In this document: one piece after another, positions 1,962 to 62,340 of the stretch
How positions within the stretch are numbered: position 1 is the stretch's first letter
Layout of the letters: every line of letters starts with the position of its first letter
NCBI RefSeq assembly: GCF_026151205.1
Contig: NC_087080.1
Span: 4,133,096 to 4,197,095, forward strand
Source of the DNA: Bolinopsis microptera
Lineage: Eukaryota; Ctenophora; Tentaculata; Lobata; Bolinopsidae
Length of the DNA stretch: 64,000 nt
Direction of reading: 5' to 3'
Notes under the pieces: generated by a model
Databases searched by the model: none
Seen by the model: the letters and a program-made list of their open reading frames with translations, nothing else
Told to the model about the DNA's origin: nothing
Program-made: the position numbers and the translations under genes

Positions 1962-4900
1962 TCAAAGTCTGTTCCACGTGTGGATGTGCATGTGGCAATG
2001 TGGGCACTTGTGTTCAACGTCCTTACAAGAGTCAGCAAAGAAGGGTATGATACAGCACATGAACCAGCCTCCAATCAAGATTATTATACCACCTATTAGC
2101 CATGTGAACGTACCTGAGGGTCAGAAATATTGCTCGATTATACTTGTTTAGTAGAACAGCGGTTCCATAAGTTAGCATTATTTTCTACACTTATCAAAAC
2201 CAGTAATAAGTTATTAATCAAGATATTCGTATTACAGGATAAGGTCCCTTCCAGCCATTGTCACCTGCCACCTAATTTGGCAGGTTTTACAGTAAGGCTG
2301 ATAATCAATTTAAAGCCTTAATATGATTCCCGTAAAATTAACCGCAATCCTGCCTATTTATTTTATACGCGCAGAGATGTATCTCACGTGATTATTAAAT
2401 TGAGTTGTTGATTATTAGAAAAGCCTGCAAAATTAAGACAAAACCTGCCTAACCTTTCCCCTACCCACAGCAGGTTTGCTCTATTTAGGCAAGTTTTCCG
2501 TTAAATATAAAGTCGAATGCTGCAGATTTAATGCAGATCCTGCGTAAGCTTAAATAATTCGAATCAACTTGTTGCGTGATTAAACCTATATTGGCAGGTA
2601 TTTGGATAATTTGAGTGTACAATGTGGAATACTGTAATGATCGTATAACTGTAAGGAATAGGACTGAGACTTGGGTTCCGGTTGTGCAACTACAGAATAC
2701 TACATTGTACATGGTTCTATAGTTTATACGTCATGTAGTCACTAGTCAGTGGCGAAACGACCGCCCCGGCTACCCCTGCTATGCGGGAGGGGGGCGGCCT
2801 CTTAGGTACGTTTCGCCGCTGCATATTAGTCCACTGTTACCAACACGGGGGTCTATGATAAGTTTGAGTATAAAAGTATAAAAACCGATTATTATTGGAA
2901 AATAACTGTTTGCTTAACTTAAGTTCTTATATTGCCATTTTAGATTAGATTGCTATGTTCTTATGTAGTGAGGACAGCACTTTTTCAGTTGCAGTGCAAC
3001 TACCAGTACAGCTGTTCAGTGTAAGATTGTAGCAGCTGAACATAACCTAAAAATACACATGTTTTATCGTTTTACTACCTACTTTATTACATTTAGTGAA
3101 TGCAGCTGCAGGTATTTTTAGATTATGTGATATTTGATCGGAAATTGGTGCATATTTTCGAATTCAATAAATCGATGATAACTGGTGTTGTCAGTGCATC
3201 TTTTTTACACAGAGGTGTATCTAATCTTCATACATCATATTGATTGATACTTTGCACCAACATCGTTTTTCAATTCAGAGGAATAACGGTTCTTTTGCGA
3301 TAGTCAAAACGCGACAACTAGCGCTGGATGGCGACAACTAGCGCTATCCAGCGCTAGTTGTCGCCATCCAGCGCTAGTTGTCGCTATCCAGCGCTGGATA
3401 ACGCTGGCCAGCGCAAAATATATATGTTCGATAATTGTCGCTATCCAGCGCCAGTTGTCGCCATCCAGCGCTAGTTGTCGCCATCCAGCGCTAGTTGTCG
3501 CTATCCAGCGCTAGTTGTCGCTGGCTATGCGACACTGTCGCACGCGATAGTTTGCGATGGCCAGCGCAACTGGCCATCGCAGAAAACAGTTCGATAACTA
3601 GCGCTGGATAGCGACAACTAGCGCTAGATAGCGACAACTAGCGCTGGCCAGCGCTAAGCGATAGCCATCGATATCCAGCGCAAAATTTTTGCGCTATTAC
3701 TCGTCAGCTAGCGCTGGCCAGCGCTGGCCAGCGCTAGCCAGCGCTAACCATCGCTAGCCAGCGCTAACCAGCGCTAGCCAGCGCTAGCCAGCGCTGGCCA
3801 GCGCTAGCTGACGAGTAATATCGCAATTATATTGCGCTGGCCAGCGCTGGCTGACGAGTAATACTAATATCGAGCGTGCTAAATCACTCTACAGTCGATC
3901 TTCGAGATTGTTCTGAAAGGGCCCCCGATGGTTGTAACCAACTTCAATCGATGTATTTTCGGACGCTAATTCCGAATCAACCCGCATGGGCCCATGACAT
4001 ATGGTTAAAATGCTCTCCTGACGAGATATTGGCGAAAAACTGTACATGTATCGATCACGTGATATGACCGTATAAGGAAGTTAGTCTAATTTCTCGTTAT
4101 TATTAGGGTTTCAGCATATGTTTTTGTTAAGGATTGGGTTAGGGTTAGGGTTGGGATCAGATTAGAGGGTTAAGGTTTCGAAAAGTCGTTCAGAACCAGC
4201 TAGAGTCAGAGAATGGGTTAAAAAAGTCACGTGACAGTCGAGTGTAAAGTGATTAATCATCATCCGACTAATATCGCAAGTATATGATTTTGATACATTG
4301 CGCTGGCTAGCGCTGGCCAGCGCTGGCTAGCGCTGGTTAGCGACAACTAGCGCTGGCTAGCGTTGGCTAGCGCTGGCTAGCGCTGGCTAGCGCTGGCTAG
4401 CGATGGTTAGCGCTGGCTAGCGCTGGCTAGCGCTGGCCAGCGCTGGCCAGCGCTAGCTGACGAGTAATAGCGCAAAAATTTTGCGCTAGATATCGATGGC
4501 CAGCGCTGGCCAGCGCTAGTTGTCGCTATCCAGCGCTAGTTGTCGCTATCCAGCGCTAGTTGTCGCTGGCTATGCGACACTGTCGCACGCGATAGTTTGC
4601 GATAGTGTCGCATAGCCAGCGACAACTAGCGCTGGATAGCGACAACTAGCGCTGGATGGCGACAACTAGCGCTGGATAGCGACAACTAGCGCTGGATGGC
4701 GACAACTAGCGCTGGATGGCGACAACTAGCGCTGGATAGCGACAATTATCGAACATATATATTTTGCGCTGGCCAGCGTTATCCAGCGCTGGATAGCGAC
4801 AACTAGCGCTGGATGGCGACAACTAGCGCTGGATAGCGCTAGTTGTCGCCATCCAGCGCTAGTTGTCGCGTTTTGACTATCGCAAAAGAACCGGAATAAC

Positions 4901-9090: not shown

Positions 9091-9497
9091 TGCTTTTCTA
9101 CCGCTTTTCCTATCACCCATGGCATGGCCTGGTTGGCATGAATTTCGTAGGAGCGACTCAAACGCGCAAGCTGGCGCAGTTTATTTGTTGCCGTTTTACT
9201 ATCTAATAACCAGATTTTACAAGCTATCTCAGCACGCGCGCGGCTTTTCTAGCGCGTATACATTACTTTTTTCCTATTACATACATCCTGGGTTTAGACC
9301 AAGAGACAAACTAAAAGTGATTTGGTCACTGGTCAGATCACTTGTTAACAATGAGACCGACAAATCTAAAATAAAGTTTTCAAGATGTGTGTGTTTTGTC
9401 TGTGTGTCCGCGTGTAATTTCCGAGCGGCTTAATGTTAATCAAGAAAACGGTAAGAGTTACGGGGCTGGTTTTTTTCGGTATAGTGCCGACAAAACT

Positions 9498-9569
9498 TTA
9501 CTGGGCCGCGCTCAGCCTGTCATTCCGCCAAATCTTTAATGAACATAATAGCCTGGGGTCCTCAGGTAA
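9498..9569 (+). mobile_element. minute 72-bp inverted-repeat element, copy 1
   Basis: Starts TTACTGGGCCGCGCTCAGCC and ends GCCTGGGGTCCTCAGGTAA, so the ends are inverted repeats TTACTGGG / CC(C)AGGTAA. The direct repeat acaaaact lies immediately outside (9490-9497 and 9570-9577). Three more copies are at 9678, 18267 and 45040. It encodes nothing. Family unknown; the size of the duplication suits Mutator, hAT, P or Merlin-like donors. Confidence 0.75.
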
Positions 9570-9677
9570 ACAAAACTATGACATGAGGAAGCCAAATGGT
9601 AAAGGTTTTTTTAAATCGGTCGGTGGTAAGTGGTTTAATTGATGGTTTAGTTGATGGTTTTGTACCACAAATGTTAC

Positions 9678-9755
9678 TTACTGGGCGGCGCTCAGCCTGT
9701 CATTCCTCCGAATCTTTTTTGTTTATAAACATAATAGCCTGGGGTCCCCAGGTAA
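9678..9755 (+). mobile_element. minute 78-bp inverted-repeat element, copy 2
   Basis: Same family as 9498-9569 (TTACTGGGCGGCGCTCAGCC ... GGGGTCCCCAGGTAA). An exact 9-bp target duplication, aaatgttac, lies at 9669-9677 and 9756-9764. The near-perfect palindrome CCTGGGGTCCCCAGG makes a strong hairpin at the right end. Only 108 bases separate it from copy 1. Confidence 0.8.
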
Positions 9756-9798
9756 AAATGTTACATAAAATAGCTTTAGCAGAATGGCAAGAGTTGCG

Positions 9799-10326
<528 letters not shown>

Positions 10327-18266: not shown

Positions 18267-18341
18267 TTATTTGGCGGCGCTCAGCCTGTCATTCCGTCAT
18301 ATTATCTTTTATGAACACAAAATCCCGAGGTCCCCGGGTAA
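18267..18341 (+). mobile_element. minute 75-bp inverted-repeat element, copy 3 (decayed)
   Basis: Same family as 9498-9569: ggcggcgctcagcctgtcat ... gaggtccccgggtaa. The left end is degraded and no target duplication is visible, so this is the oldest of the four copies. Confidence 0.65.
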
Positions 18342-44995: not shown

Positions 44996-45039
44996 TCTGC
45001 CAGTGATTAAGTGCGCCTGCATGCTATAAAGGTACAATT

Positions 45040-45109
45040 TTACTGGGTGGCGCTCAGCCCAAATCTCTATTTATGAGCATAAATATAGTAGCCTGGGGTC
45101 CCCAGGTAA
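45040..45109 (+). mobile_element. minute 70-bp inverted-repeat element, copy 4
   Basis: TTACTGGGTGGCGCTCAGCC ... CTGGGGTCCCCAGGTAA, flanked by exact 9-bp duplications ggtacaatt (45031-45039 and 45110-45118). The shortest of the four copies: the middle part between the two conserved ends is reduced, showing that only the ends are conserved. Confidence 0.85.
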
Positions 45110-45118
45110 GGTACAATT

Positions 45119-52646: not shown

Positions 52647-53520
52647 TTAAACTCTGGGAGTGAAGTCAACTTTGAAGTCCGGACCAGGAACAGCCGAAAC
52701 ACCTTGTATATTCCTGAACAATCCTTTGCCGATCTCTTGCTCTGACGTCATTTTAAAGTTATAAACCAAAGCTGCAATAAACAAACGTGTTTCAACATTG
52801 GCAAATTTTTGACCTATACAGTTGCGAGGTCCTGCAGAAAAGGGAACAAATGCGTAGGGGTTTCTGCCTCGGGAGTTTTTCTCTGAGAATCTTTCTGGGT
52901 CAAACTCCTCGGCGTTGTCCCAATGCTCAGGATCTCGGTGCAGCCACCAAATGGATACGTCAAGGTTGGTTCCGGCGGGCAGCATGTGACCATCAGCATA
53001 CATTGGTTCAGACAGCCTGCGACCCATGGTAGAAGCAGGGGGCTGGAGCCTCACGACCATTCCTAGGTACGGTAAACTTCCATGTTCAATATCATCAAAG
53101 TCCTTACCTTCCAGGTGGTCAGCGATTTCCTTGTAAAGACGTTCCTGGACATCTTGATGCCTACAAAGATAGTACACACAGAAAGCTATGGTTCCAGTAG
53201 TCGTGGCATGGCCAGCAAGTAATATTGTGTTGCATTCTCCGATTATTTGTTCGTCAGTAAAGTCCCCTCGCTCAGCCTGTTCGGAGACCATTTGGTCCAG
53301 GAATGCTCGTTTTCCTTTGTGCAGCTTAGTTTCACCCAACTCCAATGCCGTTTTCGCCTTATTTATCATTCCCATTATATGTTTGCTCAATTCATTTACA
53401 GAAGAATTCCAGCGTTTGCCACCCTGCGTCCTATTATAGTACCAATCGACCCACACCAATGGATTTGTGGATGCGGTTTTGTTAAAAAATTCTATTATCA
53501 GGGATGACAAATTTTACACT
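52647..53520 (-). pseudogene. CYP4-like cytochrome P450, partial copy 1
   Basis: About 290 codons homologous to the C-terminal half of family-4 P450s, ending at TAA 52647. Visible: the I-helix (LLAGHATTTGTIAF), WWLHRDPEHWDNAEEFDPERF and the heme loop FVPFSAGPRNCIGQKF with the Cys ligand. Defects: the I-helix acid is Ala (AGHATT instead of AGHDTT); the K-helix ExxR motif is destroyed by a 12-base in-frame deletion (VVRLQPP where copy 2 has VVKETLRLQPP); and there is no N-terminal half. An exon probably begins after ttgcag at 53520. A decayed trace of the preceding exon may lie at 53630-53685 but lacks its acceptor. P450 monooxygenases of this family usually hydroxylate fatty acids or related lipids at the ER membrane. 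This copy should not fold round heme normally. Confidence 0.8.
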
Positions 53521-54940: not shown

Positions 54941-56764
54941 TTAAACCCTGGGAGCGAAGTCAACTTTGAAGTCCGGACCAGGAATAATGAAACAAGAATG
55001 GAGAGTCCTAAACAATCCTTTGCCGAGCTCTTGCTCTGAATTCATTTTGAAGTTATAAACCAAAGCTGCAATGAACAAACGTGTTTCAACATTGCCAAAT
55101 CTTTGACCTATACAATTGCGAGGTCCTGCAGAAAAAGGAACAAATGCGTAGGGGTTTCTGCCTCGGGAGTTTTCCTCTGAGAATCTTTCTGGGTCAAACT
55201 CCTCGGCGTTGTCCCAATGCTCAGGATCCCGGTGAAGCCACCAAATGGATACGTCAAGGTTGGTTCCAGCGGGAAGCATGTGACCATCAGCATCCATTGG
55301 TTCAGTTAGCCTGCGTCCGATAATAGAAGCAGGGGGCTGGAGCCTCAAGGTTTCCTTAACGACCATTCCTAGGTACGGTAAACTTCCATGTTCAATATCA
55401 TCAAAGTCCTTACCTTGTTCGTCAGTAAGCTCCCCTCGCTCAGCCTGTTCGTAGACCATTTGGTCCAGGAATGCTCGTTTTCCTTTGTGCAGCTTAGTTT
55501 CACCCAACTCCAATGCCGTTTTCGCCTTATTTATCATTCCCATTATATGTCTGTTCAACTCATGTACAGAAGAATTCCAAAGCTTTCCACCCTGCGTCCT
55601 GTTGTAGTACCAATCGGATTGGATTAAGGGGTTTTGGGAAGATGTTCTCATCGCAAATTCGGCCATCAGGGCCGCCATGGGAGCAAAAAGGGCTTTTGCT
55701 TCCTCCCCACTTTCGAACTCAATACCAAAAGATGTTTCGCATAAGCTATAAAATGTGGCTTCCTCTATAACTTCACATATAAGCTTGGTTGGGTCCGCTT
55801 TCAGCATCGAGACAAACAAACTGGCGTGTTTTTTCATCGTTTCGGAGAAGTCTTCCAGAATGTTAAAATGGAAAGCAGGAGTAAGCATCTTACGTCGTTT
55901 TTGCCATTCTTGTCCGGGGAGTACGAGGACACTGTTCTTCAGCCACCTGATATATTTGTAAATTAGAAAGATTTGATCATATGGGATACAAAAATAAACA
56001 ACCGGAACCATATATCATAATATATGCTATCTGTCTTAGATGATTTCTACATAGTATAGATTACAGATATCATATTATATAGAGGAAAATCGCAATTGAT
56101 TATGATCTGGAAATCTATCATAGCTACACTTTATGTTACTATTATTACTTATTTTCCAATCAATCTGATTAAGCTAAGAATACAGGAAAGAAATTAATTT
56201 ACCCAGAAACTGCATCGTATTGGAAGTTTTTGTTGATGTTAACGTTTGATTTGAGGAGGGGTTCAGCTGCAGTTACAGTGTTGAAACCTCTTCAAACCTC
56301 CCCTGATTTATTTATTATTGATATTGTTTGATTGTGCCGTAAAAATAAATATTTGTTTTATTTTGTTCAGGGAGAAATTCGATTGAAAAAAGAACTTTAT
56401 GTGAGACACTGATCCTGTTTTCTTTGGGTCTGTCATCTCGAAATATCGCTGTTCATACCTGAAAAGATCTCAAAATGGTCGGATATTTCAATTGTTGTTT
56501 GCAACTTTTAATAACATTCATAATGTAAACAATGAATTAACAGCAGTACTTTTCATGAAAAATCGCAGTGAGAATGAGAACGTACAGATAAAGAGTGTCC
56601 TTGGTAACGTCCATGAAGTGATGCATGTGTCCAACAATCGGTTTAGAACCGGGGGAGACAGGAATGTCAGTGTTGTTTCTAAAAAGGTAGAACCAGGCTA
56701 GAAACAGGGCGGTGACAAGCACCACTATCAGCAGTGCCACCAACATCGTTAAACTTGGCTGCAA
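54941..56764 (-). CDS. CYP4-like cytochrome P450, copy 2 (I-helix deleted)
   Basis: Exon 1 (56586-56764) encodes a membrane anchor (MLVALLIVVLVTALFLAW) and a proline hinge (IPVSPGSKPIVGHM). A short exon starts at 56458 (YEQRYFEMTDPKKTGSV), with its donor unresolved. Another ends at 56203 (TVTAAEPLLKSNVNINKNFQ). The main exon 54941-55946 runs from WLKNSVLVLPGQEWQKRRKM (helix C) through KETLRLQPP (ExxR intact) and DPERF to the heme loop FVPFSAGPRNCIGQRF. Compared with copy 1, 46 residues (138 bases) are missing in frame between TDEQ and GKDFDD: exactly the stretch with the I-helix oxygen-binding groove. The deletion leaves CAAGGTAAGG, which reads as a good splice donor. So this copy is better preserved overall but lacks a core helix. 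Tandem with copy 1, 1.4 kb apart, same strand. Confidence 0.8.
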
Positions 56765-58909: not shown

Positions 58910-60834
58910 GTTGAAATTGTACTGGGTGAGTTGCTTAGAGGTTGGACACATCTGGTCGATTGCAGAAAATCGGATTTCCAAGGTCCGAAATGACTTGAAA
59001 AGATTTTGTAAAAAATGGAAACATTTGATAATCCATGGGAATTTTTTGGAAACATCCGAATTTTGCCCTAAACGGTCTCCGATGAGGTTTGTTGGTATCC
59101 TGGTAGGTGAGGGAGGATGTTTCCAGTTAATAGGGGCCACCATGAAAACTCGGAGGCCGGAAATGGCCCTAAAAAAGGCCTTTTTGGGGTGTTTTCCAAG
59201 TGGAGCCAATTAAAGCCAGATTTTCGGCTTTAATTGGTTGGAACAGGTTGAAATTGTACTGGGTGAGTTGCTTAGAGGTTGGACACATCTGGTCGATTGC
59301 AGAAAATCGGATTTCCAAGGTCCGAAATGACTTGAAAAGATTTTGTAAAAAATGGAAACATTTGATAATCCATGGGAATTTTTTGGAAACATCCGAATTT
59401 TGCCCTAAACGGTCTCCGATGAGGTTTGTTGGTATCCTGGTAGGTGAGGGAGGATGTTTCCAGTTAATAGGGGCCACCATGAAAACTCGGAGGCCGGAAA
59501 TGGCCCTAAAAAAGGCCTTTTTGGGGTGTTTTCCAAGTGGAGCCAATTAAAGCCAGATTTTCGGCTTTAATTGGTTGGAACAGGTTGAAATTGTACTGGG
59601 TGAGTTGCTTAGAGGTTGGACACATCTGGTCGATTGCAGAAAATCGGATTTCCAAGGTCCGAAATGACTTGAAAAGATTTTGTAAAAAAATGGAAACATT
59701 TGATAATCCATGGGAATTTTTTGGAAACATCCGAATTTTGCCCTAAACGGTCTCCGATGAGGTTTGTTGGTATCCTGGTAGGTGAGGGAGGACGTTTCCA
59801 GTTAATAGGGGCCACCATGAAAACTCGGAGGCCGGAAAAGGCCCTAAAAAAGGCCTTTTTGGGGTGTTTTCCAAGTGGAGCCAATTAAAGCCAGATTTTC
59901 GGCTTTAATTGGTTGGAACAGGTTGAAATTGTACTGGGTGAGTTGCTTAGAGGTTGGACACATCTGGTCGATTGCAGAAAATCGGATTTCCAAGGTCCGA
60001 AATGACTTGAAAAGATTTTGTAAAAAAATGGAAACATTTGATAATCCATGGGAATTTTTTGGAAACATCCGAATTTTGCCCTAAACGGTCTCCGATGAGG
60101 TTTGTTGGTATCCTGGTAGGTGAGGGAGGACGTTTCCAGTTAATAGGGGCCACCATGAAAACTCGGAGGCCGGAAAAGGCCCTAAAAAAGGCCTTTTTGG
60201 GGTGTTTTCCAAGTGGAGCCAATTAAAGCCAGATTTTCGGCTTTAATTGGTTGGAACAGGTTGAAATTGTACTGGGTGAGTTGCTTAGAGGTTGGACACA
60301 TCTGGTCGATTGCAGAAAATCGGATTTCCAAGGTCCGAAATGACTTGAAAAGATTTTGTAAAAAAATGGAAACATTTGATAATCCATGGGAATTTTTTGG
60401 AAACATCCGAATTTTGCCCTAAACGGTCTTCGATGAGGTTTGTTGGTATCCTGGTAGGTGAGGGAGGACGTTTCCAGTTAATAGGGGCCACCATGAAAAC
60501 TCGGAGGCCGGAAATGGCCCTAAAAAAGGCCTTTTTGGGGTGTTTTCCAAGTGGAGCCAATTAAAGCCAGATTTTCGGCTTTAATTGGTTGGAACAGGTC
60601 CAAATTGTACCGGGTGAGTTGCATAGTAATATGACACATTTTATTTATCGTAGAAAACCGGAGTCTCAAGTTCAAAAATAATTAAAAAATATTTTCTTAA
60701 AAAATGGAAACATTTGATAATCCATGGGAATTTTTTGGAAGCATCCGAATTTTGCCCTAAACGGTCTCTGATGAGGTTTGTTGGTATCCTGGTAGGCGAG
60801 GGAGGACGTTTCCAATTAATAGGGAAAACACCCA
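58910..60834 (+). repeat. 337-338 bp satellite, forward block
   Basis: Five units starting near 58910, 59247, 59584, 59922 and 60260, and a diverged sixth from 60598. The first five differ at only a few bases. Each junction has a hairpin, CCAATTAAAGCC / GGCTTTAATTGG with an 8-base loop. The overlapping frames on both strands repeat with the unit and are by-products. Confidence 0.95.
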
Positions 60835-62340
60835 AAAAGGCCTTTTTTAGGGTCATTTCCGGCTACCAAGTTTTCTTGATGGCCTTTATTAACTAGAATC
60901 GTCCTCCCTGACCTACCAAGACACCAAAAAACCTCATCAGAGACCGTTTAGGGCAAAATTCGGATGTTTCCAAAAAATTCCCATGGATTATCAAATGTTT
61001 CCATTTTTTTACAAAATATTTTTAAATTAATTTTGAACTTGGAACCCCGGTTTTCTTCGATAAATAAGATGTGTCATATTACTATGCAACTCACCCGGTA
61101 CAATTTGGACCTGTTCCGACCAATTAAAGCCAAAAATGTGGCTTTAATTGGCTCAAATTGAAAAACACCCAAAAAGGCCTTTTTTAGGGCCATTTCCGGC
61201 TACCGAGTTTTCGTGATTGCCTTTATTAACTAGAATCGTCCTCCCTGACCTACCAAGACACCAAAAAACCTCATCAGAGACCGTTTAGGGCAAAATTCGG
61301 ATGTTTCCAAAAAATTCCCATGGATTATCAAATGTTTCCATTTTTTTACAAAATCTTTTTAAATTAATTTTGAACTTGGAACCCCGGTTTTCTTCGATAA
61401 ATAAGATGTGTCATATTACTATGCAACTCACCCGGTACAATTTGGACCTGTTCCGACCAATTAAAGCCAAAAATGTGGCTTTAATTGGCTCAAATTGAAA
61501 AACACCCAAAAAGGCCTTTTTTAGGGCCATTTCCGGCTACCGAGTTTTTGTGATGACCTTTATTAACTAGAATCGTCCTCCCTGACCTACCAAGACACCA
61601 AAAAACCTCATCAGAGACCGTTTAGGGCAAAATTCGGATGTTTCCAAAAAATTCCCATGGATTATCAAATGTTTCCATTTTTTAAGAAAATATTTTCAAA
61701 TTATATTTGAATCTCGGTTTTCTACGATAAACAAGATGTGTCCTATCGCTTTTGAACTCACCCGGTACAATTTGGACCTGTTCCGACCAATTAAAGCCGA
61801 AAATCTGGATTTAATTGGCTCAAATTTGAAAACACCCCAAAAGGCCTTTTTTAGGGCCATTTCCGGCCTCCAAATTTTCTTGATCGCCCCTATTAACTGA
61901 AATTGTCTTCCCTGACCTACCAAGACACTAAAAAACTCATTGGAGATCTTTTAAGGTAAAATTGGGATGTTTCCAAAAAATTCCCATGGATTATCAAATG
62001 TTTCCATTTTTTAAGAAAATATTTTCAAATTATATTTGAATCTCGGTTTTCTACGATAAACAAGATGTGTCCTATCGCTTTTGAACTCACCCGGTACAAT
62101 TTGGACCTGTTCCGACCAATTAAAGCCGAAAATCTGGATTTAATTGGCTCAAATTGGAAAACACCTCAAAAGGCCTTTTTAGGGCCATTTTCGGCCTCCA
62201 AGTATCTGTGATGGCCTCAATTAACTGGAAATGTCTTCCCTGACCTATCAGGACCCTAGATAACCTCATCAGAAACCTTTTTGGGCAAAATTAGGTTGTT
62301 TCCAAAAAATGTTTCCATTTTACAAAAGGCCATTTTCAGT
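60835..62340 (-). repeat. 337-bp satellite, inverted block
   Basis: About 4.5 units in the opposite orientation, starting at an inversion point near 60835-60890 where gcgagggaggacgtttcc meets ggatgatt-type complement (atcgtcctccctgacctacc). Units 60964, 61301 and 61638 are about 337 bases apart; the last units are more diverged and fade out by about 62340. Confidence 0.95.

What the first reader, a model, noticed from the sequence alone, without database searches (positions are those of the whole stretch)
9498..9755. A 70-78 bp transposable unit with 8-9 bp target duplications
Four copies (9498-9569, 9678-9755, 18267-18341, 45040-45109) share TTACTGGGYGGCGCTCAG at one end and GGGGTCCCCAGGTAA at the other. 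Three are flanked by perfect but different direct repeats (acaaaact, aaatgttac, ggtacaatt), which shows real insertion events. Only the ends are conserved; the middle varies in length. This is near the lower size limit for a mobile DNA element, and I cannot match it to a named family. It may be mobilised in trans by a transposase that makes 8-9 bp duplications.
Basis: seen in the sequence. Interest (0 to 1): 0.8.

Follow-up and report, generated by a model that had tools for sequence, protein, structure and literature searches.

The report
Tiny high-copy animal transposon (MITE)
A gene-less piece of DNA mostly 70 to 90 base pairs long occurs thousands of times in an animal genome (probably a comb jelly) and usually sits between 8 or 9 base-pair copies of its target, so it is a real but very small jumping element that must borrow its enzyme from elsewhere.

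Summary
Confirmed and extended. The four window copies exist as described; three have perfect 8-9 bp target-site duplications (TSDs). In the whole genome (264.65 Mb) the left 18-mer occurs 5,289 times at up to 2 mismatches (reversed-pattern control 3) and the right 18-mer 4,934 times (control 15). Of 102 independent two-ended copies, 75 carry TSDs (44 of 8 bp, 31 of 9 bp); re-paired flanks never gave more than 4. It is a non-coding terminal-inverted-repeat DNA transposon (a MITE), so it must be moved in trans. Indels concentrate in the AT-rich middle; a few copies form a chain of four palindromes. A ~345 bp relative has the same ends and 8 bp TSDs. Three ~3.7 kb intervals on contig C1 are bounded by inverted left ends and may be the autonomous partner, but I could not read them. 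The superfamily is unresolved: animal Mutator-like elements fit best (8/9 bp TSDs, palindromic termini, 88 MULE-domain matches in the genome), yet no MULE match lies in those intervals. Assembly statistics fit the ctenophore Bolinopsis microptera. Untested but interesting: the left end, with two CpGs, may carry the GC-rich ctenophore chromatin-loop motif.

The parts
9498..9569 (+). MITE copy 1, 72 bp, both ends
   Evidence: left end 1 change and right end 1 change from the consensus
9490..9497 (.). left TSD of copy 1, acaaaact (8 bp); its partner is 9570-9577
9570..9577 (.). right TSD of copy 1, acaaaact
9678..9755 (+). MITE copy 2, 78 bp, both ends exact
9669..9677 (.). left TSD of copy 2, aaatgttac (9 bp)
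9756..9764 (.). right TSD of copy 2, aaatgttac
9681..9695 (+). left terminal near-palindrome CTGGGCG-G-CGCTCAG of copy 2 (one mismatch), with two CpGs
9738..9752 (+). right terminal palindrome CCTGGGG-T-CCCCAGG of copy 2 (no mismatch)
18267..18341 (+). MITE copy 3, 75 bp, decayed ends, no TSD found
45040..45109 (+). MITE copy 4, 70 bp
45031..45039 (.). left TSD of copy 4, ggtacaatt (9 bp)
45110..45118 (.). right TSD of copy 4, ggtacaatt

Best explanation
A high-copy, non-autonomous terminal-inverted-repeat DNA transposon (MITE), usually 70-90 bp, with termini TTA-CTGGGCGGCGCTCAG and CCTGGGGTCCCCAGG-TAA. A transposase encoded elsewhere recognises the two ends (each end holds a 15 bp palindrome that would suit a dimeric binding domain), cuts the element out and joins it to staggered target cuts of 8 or 9 bp; repair yields the duplications. 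Shown: defined ends, thousands of copies, 8/9 bp duplications, a longer relative with the same ends and 8 bp duplications, insertion of the element into itself. Inferred: the cut-and-paste mechanism, the role of the palindromes, and the source of the transposase. Most likely source: a Mutator-like (MULE) element of the animal type (about 0.4); the remainder is spread over superfamilies I could not search. The middle varies because it is not needed for movement and because its AT-rich inverted repeat is prone to slippage or hairpin-linked indels.
For: 75 of 102 independent copies with 8/9 bp TSDs, 53 of them perfect, shuffles at most 4 of 102. 5,289 left and 4,934 right ends genome-wide, controls 3 and 15. 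95 distinct interiors in 102 copies; indel events per site per copy 0.0485 in the centre against 0.0063 in the left inner segment and 0.0225 in the right inner segment. The ~345 bp family has the same ends, 41 long matches (40 of 1,445 candidates scored), and 8 bp TSDs in 4 of 4 two-ended loci held, of which L056 and L064 share flanks. Self-insertion with an 8 bp TSD in L133. Three convergent left-left pairs on C1 at 3,667, 3,672 and 3,778 bp; clusters of three that tight arose in 1 of 20,000 random placements. None of those six ends is in the C1 listing, so they share a non-standard interior. For MULE: 88 PF10551 matches in the genome, many in open frames of 200-500 aa; passages of PMC5225508 say that all 14 Aedes aegypti MULE families have 8-9 bp TSDs and that Muta1 ends in a 10 bp imperfect palindromic motif and has non-autonomous derivatives with variable interiors.
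Against: No transposase was found inside any element with these ends. No PF10551 match lies inside the three ~3.7 kb intervals, and the 8 C1 matches are 3.2 kb (one) or at least 57 kb (seven) from the nearest exact left end (exact ends only). The ends are short and imperfect, whereas MULE TIRs are typically over 100 bp. 25 of 102 copies show no 8/9 bp TSD at up to one mismatch and 2 more only 7 bp. The sample required recognisable ends without indels, so end conservation is partly by selection of copies. The 3.7 kb spacing was noticed first and tested afterwards, and the intervals were not read.
Confidence: 0.9

Rival explanations
1. The element belongs to the Merlin superfamily (IS1595/IS1016-related DDE transposase), which also makes 8 or 9 bp duplications.
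For: The 8/9 bp mix matches Merlin as described in passages of PMC8101967 and PMC4482050. PMC8101967 also reports one Merlin family with very divergent 5' and 3' TIRs, as here.
Against: Merlin TIRs end in a conserved 5'-GG; this element ends in TTA. The candidate partner at 3.7 kb is long for Merlin (recalled, no call). The PF12762 search did not complete.
Confidence: 0.1
2. The element is a hAT MITE.
For: 8 bp TSDs in 44 of 102 copies. hAT remnants exist in this genome: PF05699 at E 8.8e-7 in L017, about 640 bp from a MITE.
Against: 31 of the 75 TSD-bearing copies have 9 bp; PMC4482050 gives 5-8 bp for hAT. The hAT terminal consensus (CAG/TAG, recalled) is absent. The PF05699 genome search did not complete.
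Confidence: 0.06
3. Another or undescribed DNA-transposon superfamily (KDZ, P, or a ctenophore-specific one) supplies the transposase; the ~3.7 kb left-left elements are its autonomous members.
For: No PF10551 match in the three ~3.7 kb intervals; termini TTAC...GTAA match no superfamily that I could check.
Against: No positive evidence; PF18758 and PF20700 searches did not complete (in part).
Confidence: 0.42
4. Segmental duplication or a satellite, not transposition, spread the unit.
For: 15 of 117 distinct copies share flanks with another, one copy type sits inside a larger repeat present at least 7 times (L038, L093, L101, L112, L113, L115, L116), and the left end has been captured in an 84 bp tandem array on C12.
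Against: 102 copies have independent flanks and 75 of them have different 8/9 bp TSDs.
Confidence: 0.02

Closest known systems
Animal Mutator-like elements and their non-autonomous derivatives, e.g. Muta1 of Aedes aegypti (PMC5225508, passages seen)
   Same: 8 or 9 bp TSDs; palindromic terminal motif; hundreds of non-autonomous copies sharing ends with variable interiors; MULE transposases present in this genome.
   Different: Muta1 has 145 bp TIRs with subterminal tandem repeats and a 10 bp palindrome; here the whole element is about 80 bp with ~20 bp imperfect TIRs, and no MULE transposase was tied to these ends.
Merlin (PMC8101967, passages seen)
   Same: 8 or 9 bp TSDs; short TIRs; imperfect TIRs known in one family.
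   Different: Conserved terminal 5'-GG is absent here; no Merlin transposase could be searched for.
CMITEs of Acropora corals (PMC2872659, passages seen)
   Same: About 100 bp, homogeneous small MITEs of a non-bilaterian animal.
   Different: Conserved middle and varying TIRs with TTAA TSDs (piggyBac); here conserved ends, varying middle, 8/9 bp TSDs.
Placozoan Mutator TIRs at chromatin-loop anchors (PMC12221973, passages seen)
   Same: Transposon ends carrying a protein-binding motif in an early-branching animal; in ctenophores the loop motif is GC-rich with two CpGs, as is this left end.
   Different: For ctenophores that paper names no transposon family as motif carrier in the passages seen; the motif letters are only in a figure, so identity was not tested.

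Membership tests
MITE (non-autonomous TIR DNA transposon) | defined ends with terminal inverted repeats | tested here: met
   imperfect TIR of about 20 bp, TTA-CTGGGCGGCGCTCAG against TTACCTGGGGACCCCAGG with gaps
MITE (non-autonomous TIR DNA transposon) | target-site duplications of fixed length | tested here: met
   75 of 102 independent copies with 8 or 9 bp
MITE (non-autonomous TIR DNA transposon) | high copy number, no coding capacity | tested here: met
   5,289 left ends; 60-133 bp in the 102 copies
MITE (non-autonomous TIR DNA transposon) | an autonomous relative with the same ends | tested here: inconclusive
   three ~3.7 kb left-left intervals by coordinates, not read; ~345 bp non-coding relative
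Mutator-like (MULE) | 8-11 bp TSD (animal families 8-9 bp) | tested here: met
Mutator-like (MULE) | MULE transposase between the same ends | tested here: inconclusive
   88 PF10551 matches in the genome, none in the three candidate intervals; termini of the MULE loci could not be read
Mutator-like (MULE) | long TIRs, usually over 100 bp | tested here: not met
   about 20 bp imperfect; PMC5225508 reports 2 of 14 families under 60 bp, so typical rather than strictly defining; the element is not filed as a MULE
Merlin | 8 or 9 bp TSD | tested here: met
Merlin | terminal 5'-GG | tested here: not met
   terminus is TTA in the alignment
Merlin | DDE_Tnp_IS1595 transposase | not tested
   PF12762 genome search asked 23 times, never answered
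hAT | TSD not longer than 8 bp | tested here: not met
   31 of 75 TSD-bearing copies have 9 bp
piggyBac-type MITE | TTAA TSD | tested here: not met
   TSDs are varied 8/9-mers

The most novel reading that the evidence does not exclude
The left end, TGGGCGGCGCTCAG with two CpGs, is a binding site of the ctenophore tethering proteins CTEP1/CTEP2, so that this MITE has scattered thousands of potential chromatin-loop anchors through the genome, each switchable by CpG methylation. Basis: the genome statistics fit Bolinopsis microptera; PMC12221973 (passages) reports a GC-rich, two-CpG motif in over 75% of Mnemiopsis loop anchors, with over 90% of looping promoters holding a DNA-transposon insertion. 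The motif letters were not available to me, so identity is untested.
Probability: 0.1. Interest if true: 0.85.

Novelty: new member of a known kind. Interest (0 to 1): 0.4.

Why it matters
It documents a very small and very successful DNA transposon, at about 5,000 copies, in what is probably a ctenophore, a lineage whose transposons are little described in the papers I saw. Its mixed 8/9 bp duplications and paired terminal palindromes make the transposase a findable target. If its GC-rich two-CpG left end proves to be the ctenophore loop-anchor motif, it would give a concrete transposon source for an animal 3D-genome system, which PMC12221973 leaves open.

Tried and rejected
Viral and prokaryotic collections: a 19-mer of the left end has one IMG/VR match (L097); the surrounding sequence is unlike the element and I take it as chance. 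A 22-mer has 0 matches in genome contigs; that collection holds bacteria and archaea, so this says little.

Other interior: a pattern meant to exclude the usual interior was mis-specified and matched it (819 matches, still used as a listing). The corrected one gave 8 matches, of which 3 lie in one satellite and the other 5 are MITE variants or a solo left end.

hAT in L017 next to a MITE: the ORF holds a hAT dimerisation domain, but the MITE is complete and not joined to it. MULE beside L021: its first 1.5 kb shows no related terminus. MULE matches within 1 kb of an element copy: C4:8979653 lies 620 bp from a ~345 bp copy and C5:9858179 lies 736 bp from a MITE; read off the lists by eye, no formal test, taken as weak.

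Hypermutable centre after insertion: of six incidental sets of copies with shared flanks, three differ in the centre by indels (L001/L008, L016/L017, L070/L071) and three do not (L072/L073, L038/L093, L101/L112/L115 second copy). Other sets were fetched because their centres were alike, and were not counted. Suggestive only.

Four-hairpin structure as a functional fold: an 87-nt copy folds well as single-stranded DNA (z -6.04, 0 of 200 shuffles), but the four window copies do not (z -1.50, 0.08, -1.96, -0.53). The second hairpin is recognisable in 11 of 102 copies, and with full 8 bp arms in 2. I do not claim that the chain is functional.

Rfam: only MIR474 at 3704-3813, inside an inverted-repeat element, taken as an artefact.

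Full report
What is there. The four copies are present at the stated coordinates. Three have perfect and different duplications of 8, 9 and 9 bp; the copy at 18267-18341 is decayed and has none. The two copies at 9498 and 9678 are independent insertions 108 bp apart, as their duplications differ. Motif matches in the window exceed shuffles.

Genome. The window lies in a 264,652,675-base assembly of 232 contigs. Its largest listed contig has 26,206,493 bases and the window's GC averages 37.9% (my mean). Table 1 of PMC11797021, seen as a passage, gives Bolinopsis microptera 265 Mb, 13 chromosomes, largest 26.2 Mb, GC 38.5%; its 346 scaffolds do not match 232. I infer B. microptera or a very close relative; no gene was tested for this.

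Copy number. An exact 20-mer inside the left end has 862 matches. The strict two-ended pattern has 203 matches at 21-51 bp gap and 101 at 52-82 bp, reversed controls 0. At up to 2 mismatches, single ends number 5,289 left (control 3) and 4,934 right (control 15). The forward and reverse counts are near equal, so there is no strand bias.

Duplications. From the window and the loci held (L074-L076 and L097 left out), I took copies with a left end at up to 3 substitutions and a right end at up to 4 within 140 bp: 117 distinct, 15 dropped for shared flanks, 102 kept. TSDs: 8 bp 44 (34 perfect), 9 bp 31 (19 perfect), 7 bp 2, none 25. In 500 re-pairings of left and right flanks the number with an 8/9 bp call was 0 to 4. 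An earlier subset of 80 gave the same picture. TSD sequences show no strong preference by eye; their GC is 0.41 against 0.39 in the flanks. Most loci come from contigs C1-C3, so the sample is regional.

Anatomy. Ends are TTA-CTGGGCGGCGCTCAG and CCTGGGGTCCCCAGG-TAA. Each holds a 15 bp palindrome with a one-base centre, the left with one mismatch, the right perfect. The two ends form an imperfect TIR. The interior reads CCTGTCATTCCGCCGAATCTTTATT..TTTATGAACATAATAG. 95 of 102 copies have a distinct interior. Indel events per site per copy are 0.0485 in the centre, 0.0063 in the left inner segment, 0.0225 in the right inner segment; substitutions follow the same order. The end zones were part of the filter and cannot be compared. 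Some copies duplicate short blocks in tandem (L058, L066). A fuller form with CGCCGAAT-CTTT-ATTCGGCG before TTATGTT-TATG-AACATAA gives a chain of four palindromes; it folds better than all 200 shuffles, but the four window copies fold no better or only slightly better than shuffles, and the second hairpin is clear in only 11 of 102 copies. Whether the fuller form is ancestral is inference.

Longer relatives. A ~341-373 bp family shares both ends. A search with a 345-nt query found 41 long matches, with 40 of 1,445 candidates scored. The 4 two-ended loci held (L053, L056, L057, L064) have 8 bp TSDs, one perfect and three with one mismatch; L056 and L064 share flanks. So one machinery probably moves both sizes. 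One copy sits inside the left end of another with an 8 bp TSD (L133).

Candidate partner. On C1 the first 100 exact left ends include five convergent pairs within 8 kb, three of them at 3,667, 3,672 and 3,778 bp; controls within 8 kb are 3 divergent and 8 same-strand pairs, none with repeated spacing near 3.7 kb. Three pairs within 120 bp of one another arose in 1 of 20,000 random placements; the spacing was seen before it was tested. None of the six ends is in the C1 listing, so they have an unusual interior. These may be ~3.7 kb elements with left-type ends at both termini, the likely autonomous members.

Which transposase. PF10551 (MULE) gives 88 matches, 131 of 131 candidates scored, many in long open frames. 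None lies in the three intervals; the 8 on C1 are 3.2 kb (one) or at least 57 kb (seven) from the nearest exact left end. PF12762, PF20700, PF18758 and PF05699 searches did not complete. Passages of PMC5225508 show that animal MULEs make 8-9 bp TSDs and that Muta1 ends in a palindromic motif; passages of PMC8101967 show that Merlin makes 8 or 9 bp TSDs but ends in GG, which this element does not. I give MULE about 0.4, an unsearched superfamily about 0.4, Merlin 0.1, hAT 0.06.

Beyond transposition. PMC12221973 (passages only) reports that ctenophore loop anchors carry a GC-rich motif with two CpGs bound by CTEP1 and CTEP2, and that over 90% of looping promoters in Mnemiopsis hold a DNA-transposon insertion. 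The left end here is GC-rich with two CpGs. The motif letters are in a figure that I could not see. This is a lead, at about 0.1.

Novelty. Four stretches of the ends searched as text in the held library gave 8 papers, all on unrelated topics by title; searches for MITEs with such TSDs, in ctenophores or of record size listed no match to this element that I recognised. Subscription papers and Repbase were not searched. I file it as a new member of a known kind.

Noticed in passing
window 3288-4892: A 1,605 bp element with 164 bp perfect TIRs (GGTTCTTTTGCGATAG...), internal tandem blocks of AGCGCTGGATAGCGACAACT type, and an 8 bp TSD ggaataac (3280-3287 and 4893-4900); it looks like a Mutator-type foldback element. 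Rfam's MIR474 match at 3704-3813 falls inside it.
   Followed up: partly
L058:518 onward: The same foldback terminus directly follows a MITE left end (TTACTGGGCGGCACTCAGC), the same point at which a MITE entered another MITE in L133; two cases only.
   Followed up: partly
L074-L076 (G000:C12, about 1,575,890-1,578,767): A tandem array with an 84 bp unit that begins with the MITE left end TTACTGGGCGGCGCTCAG: a transposon end captured into a satellite.
   Followed up: partly
window 58910-62310: Two adjoining tandem arrays with 337-338 bp units.
   Followed up: no
window 9802-10324: A perfect CT dinucleotide run of about 523 bp lies 38 bp after the second MITE's right TSD.
   Followed up: no
window 52647-53513 and 54941-56014, minus strand: Two adjacent cytochrome P450 coding stretches; the first matches PF00067 at 3e-61, the second is similar by eye.
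   Followed up: partly
L017:91-858: Remnant of a hAT transposase with an open frame of 256 aa, PF05699 E 8.8e-7.
   Followed up: partly
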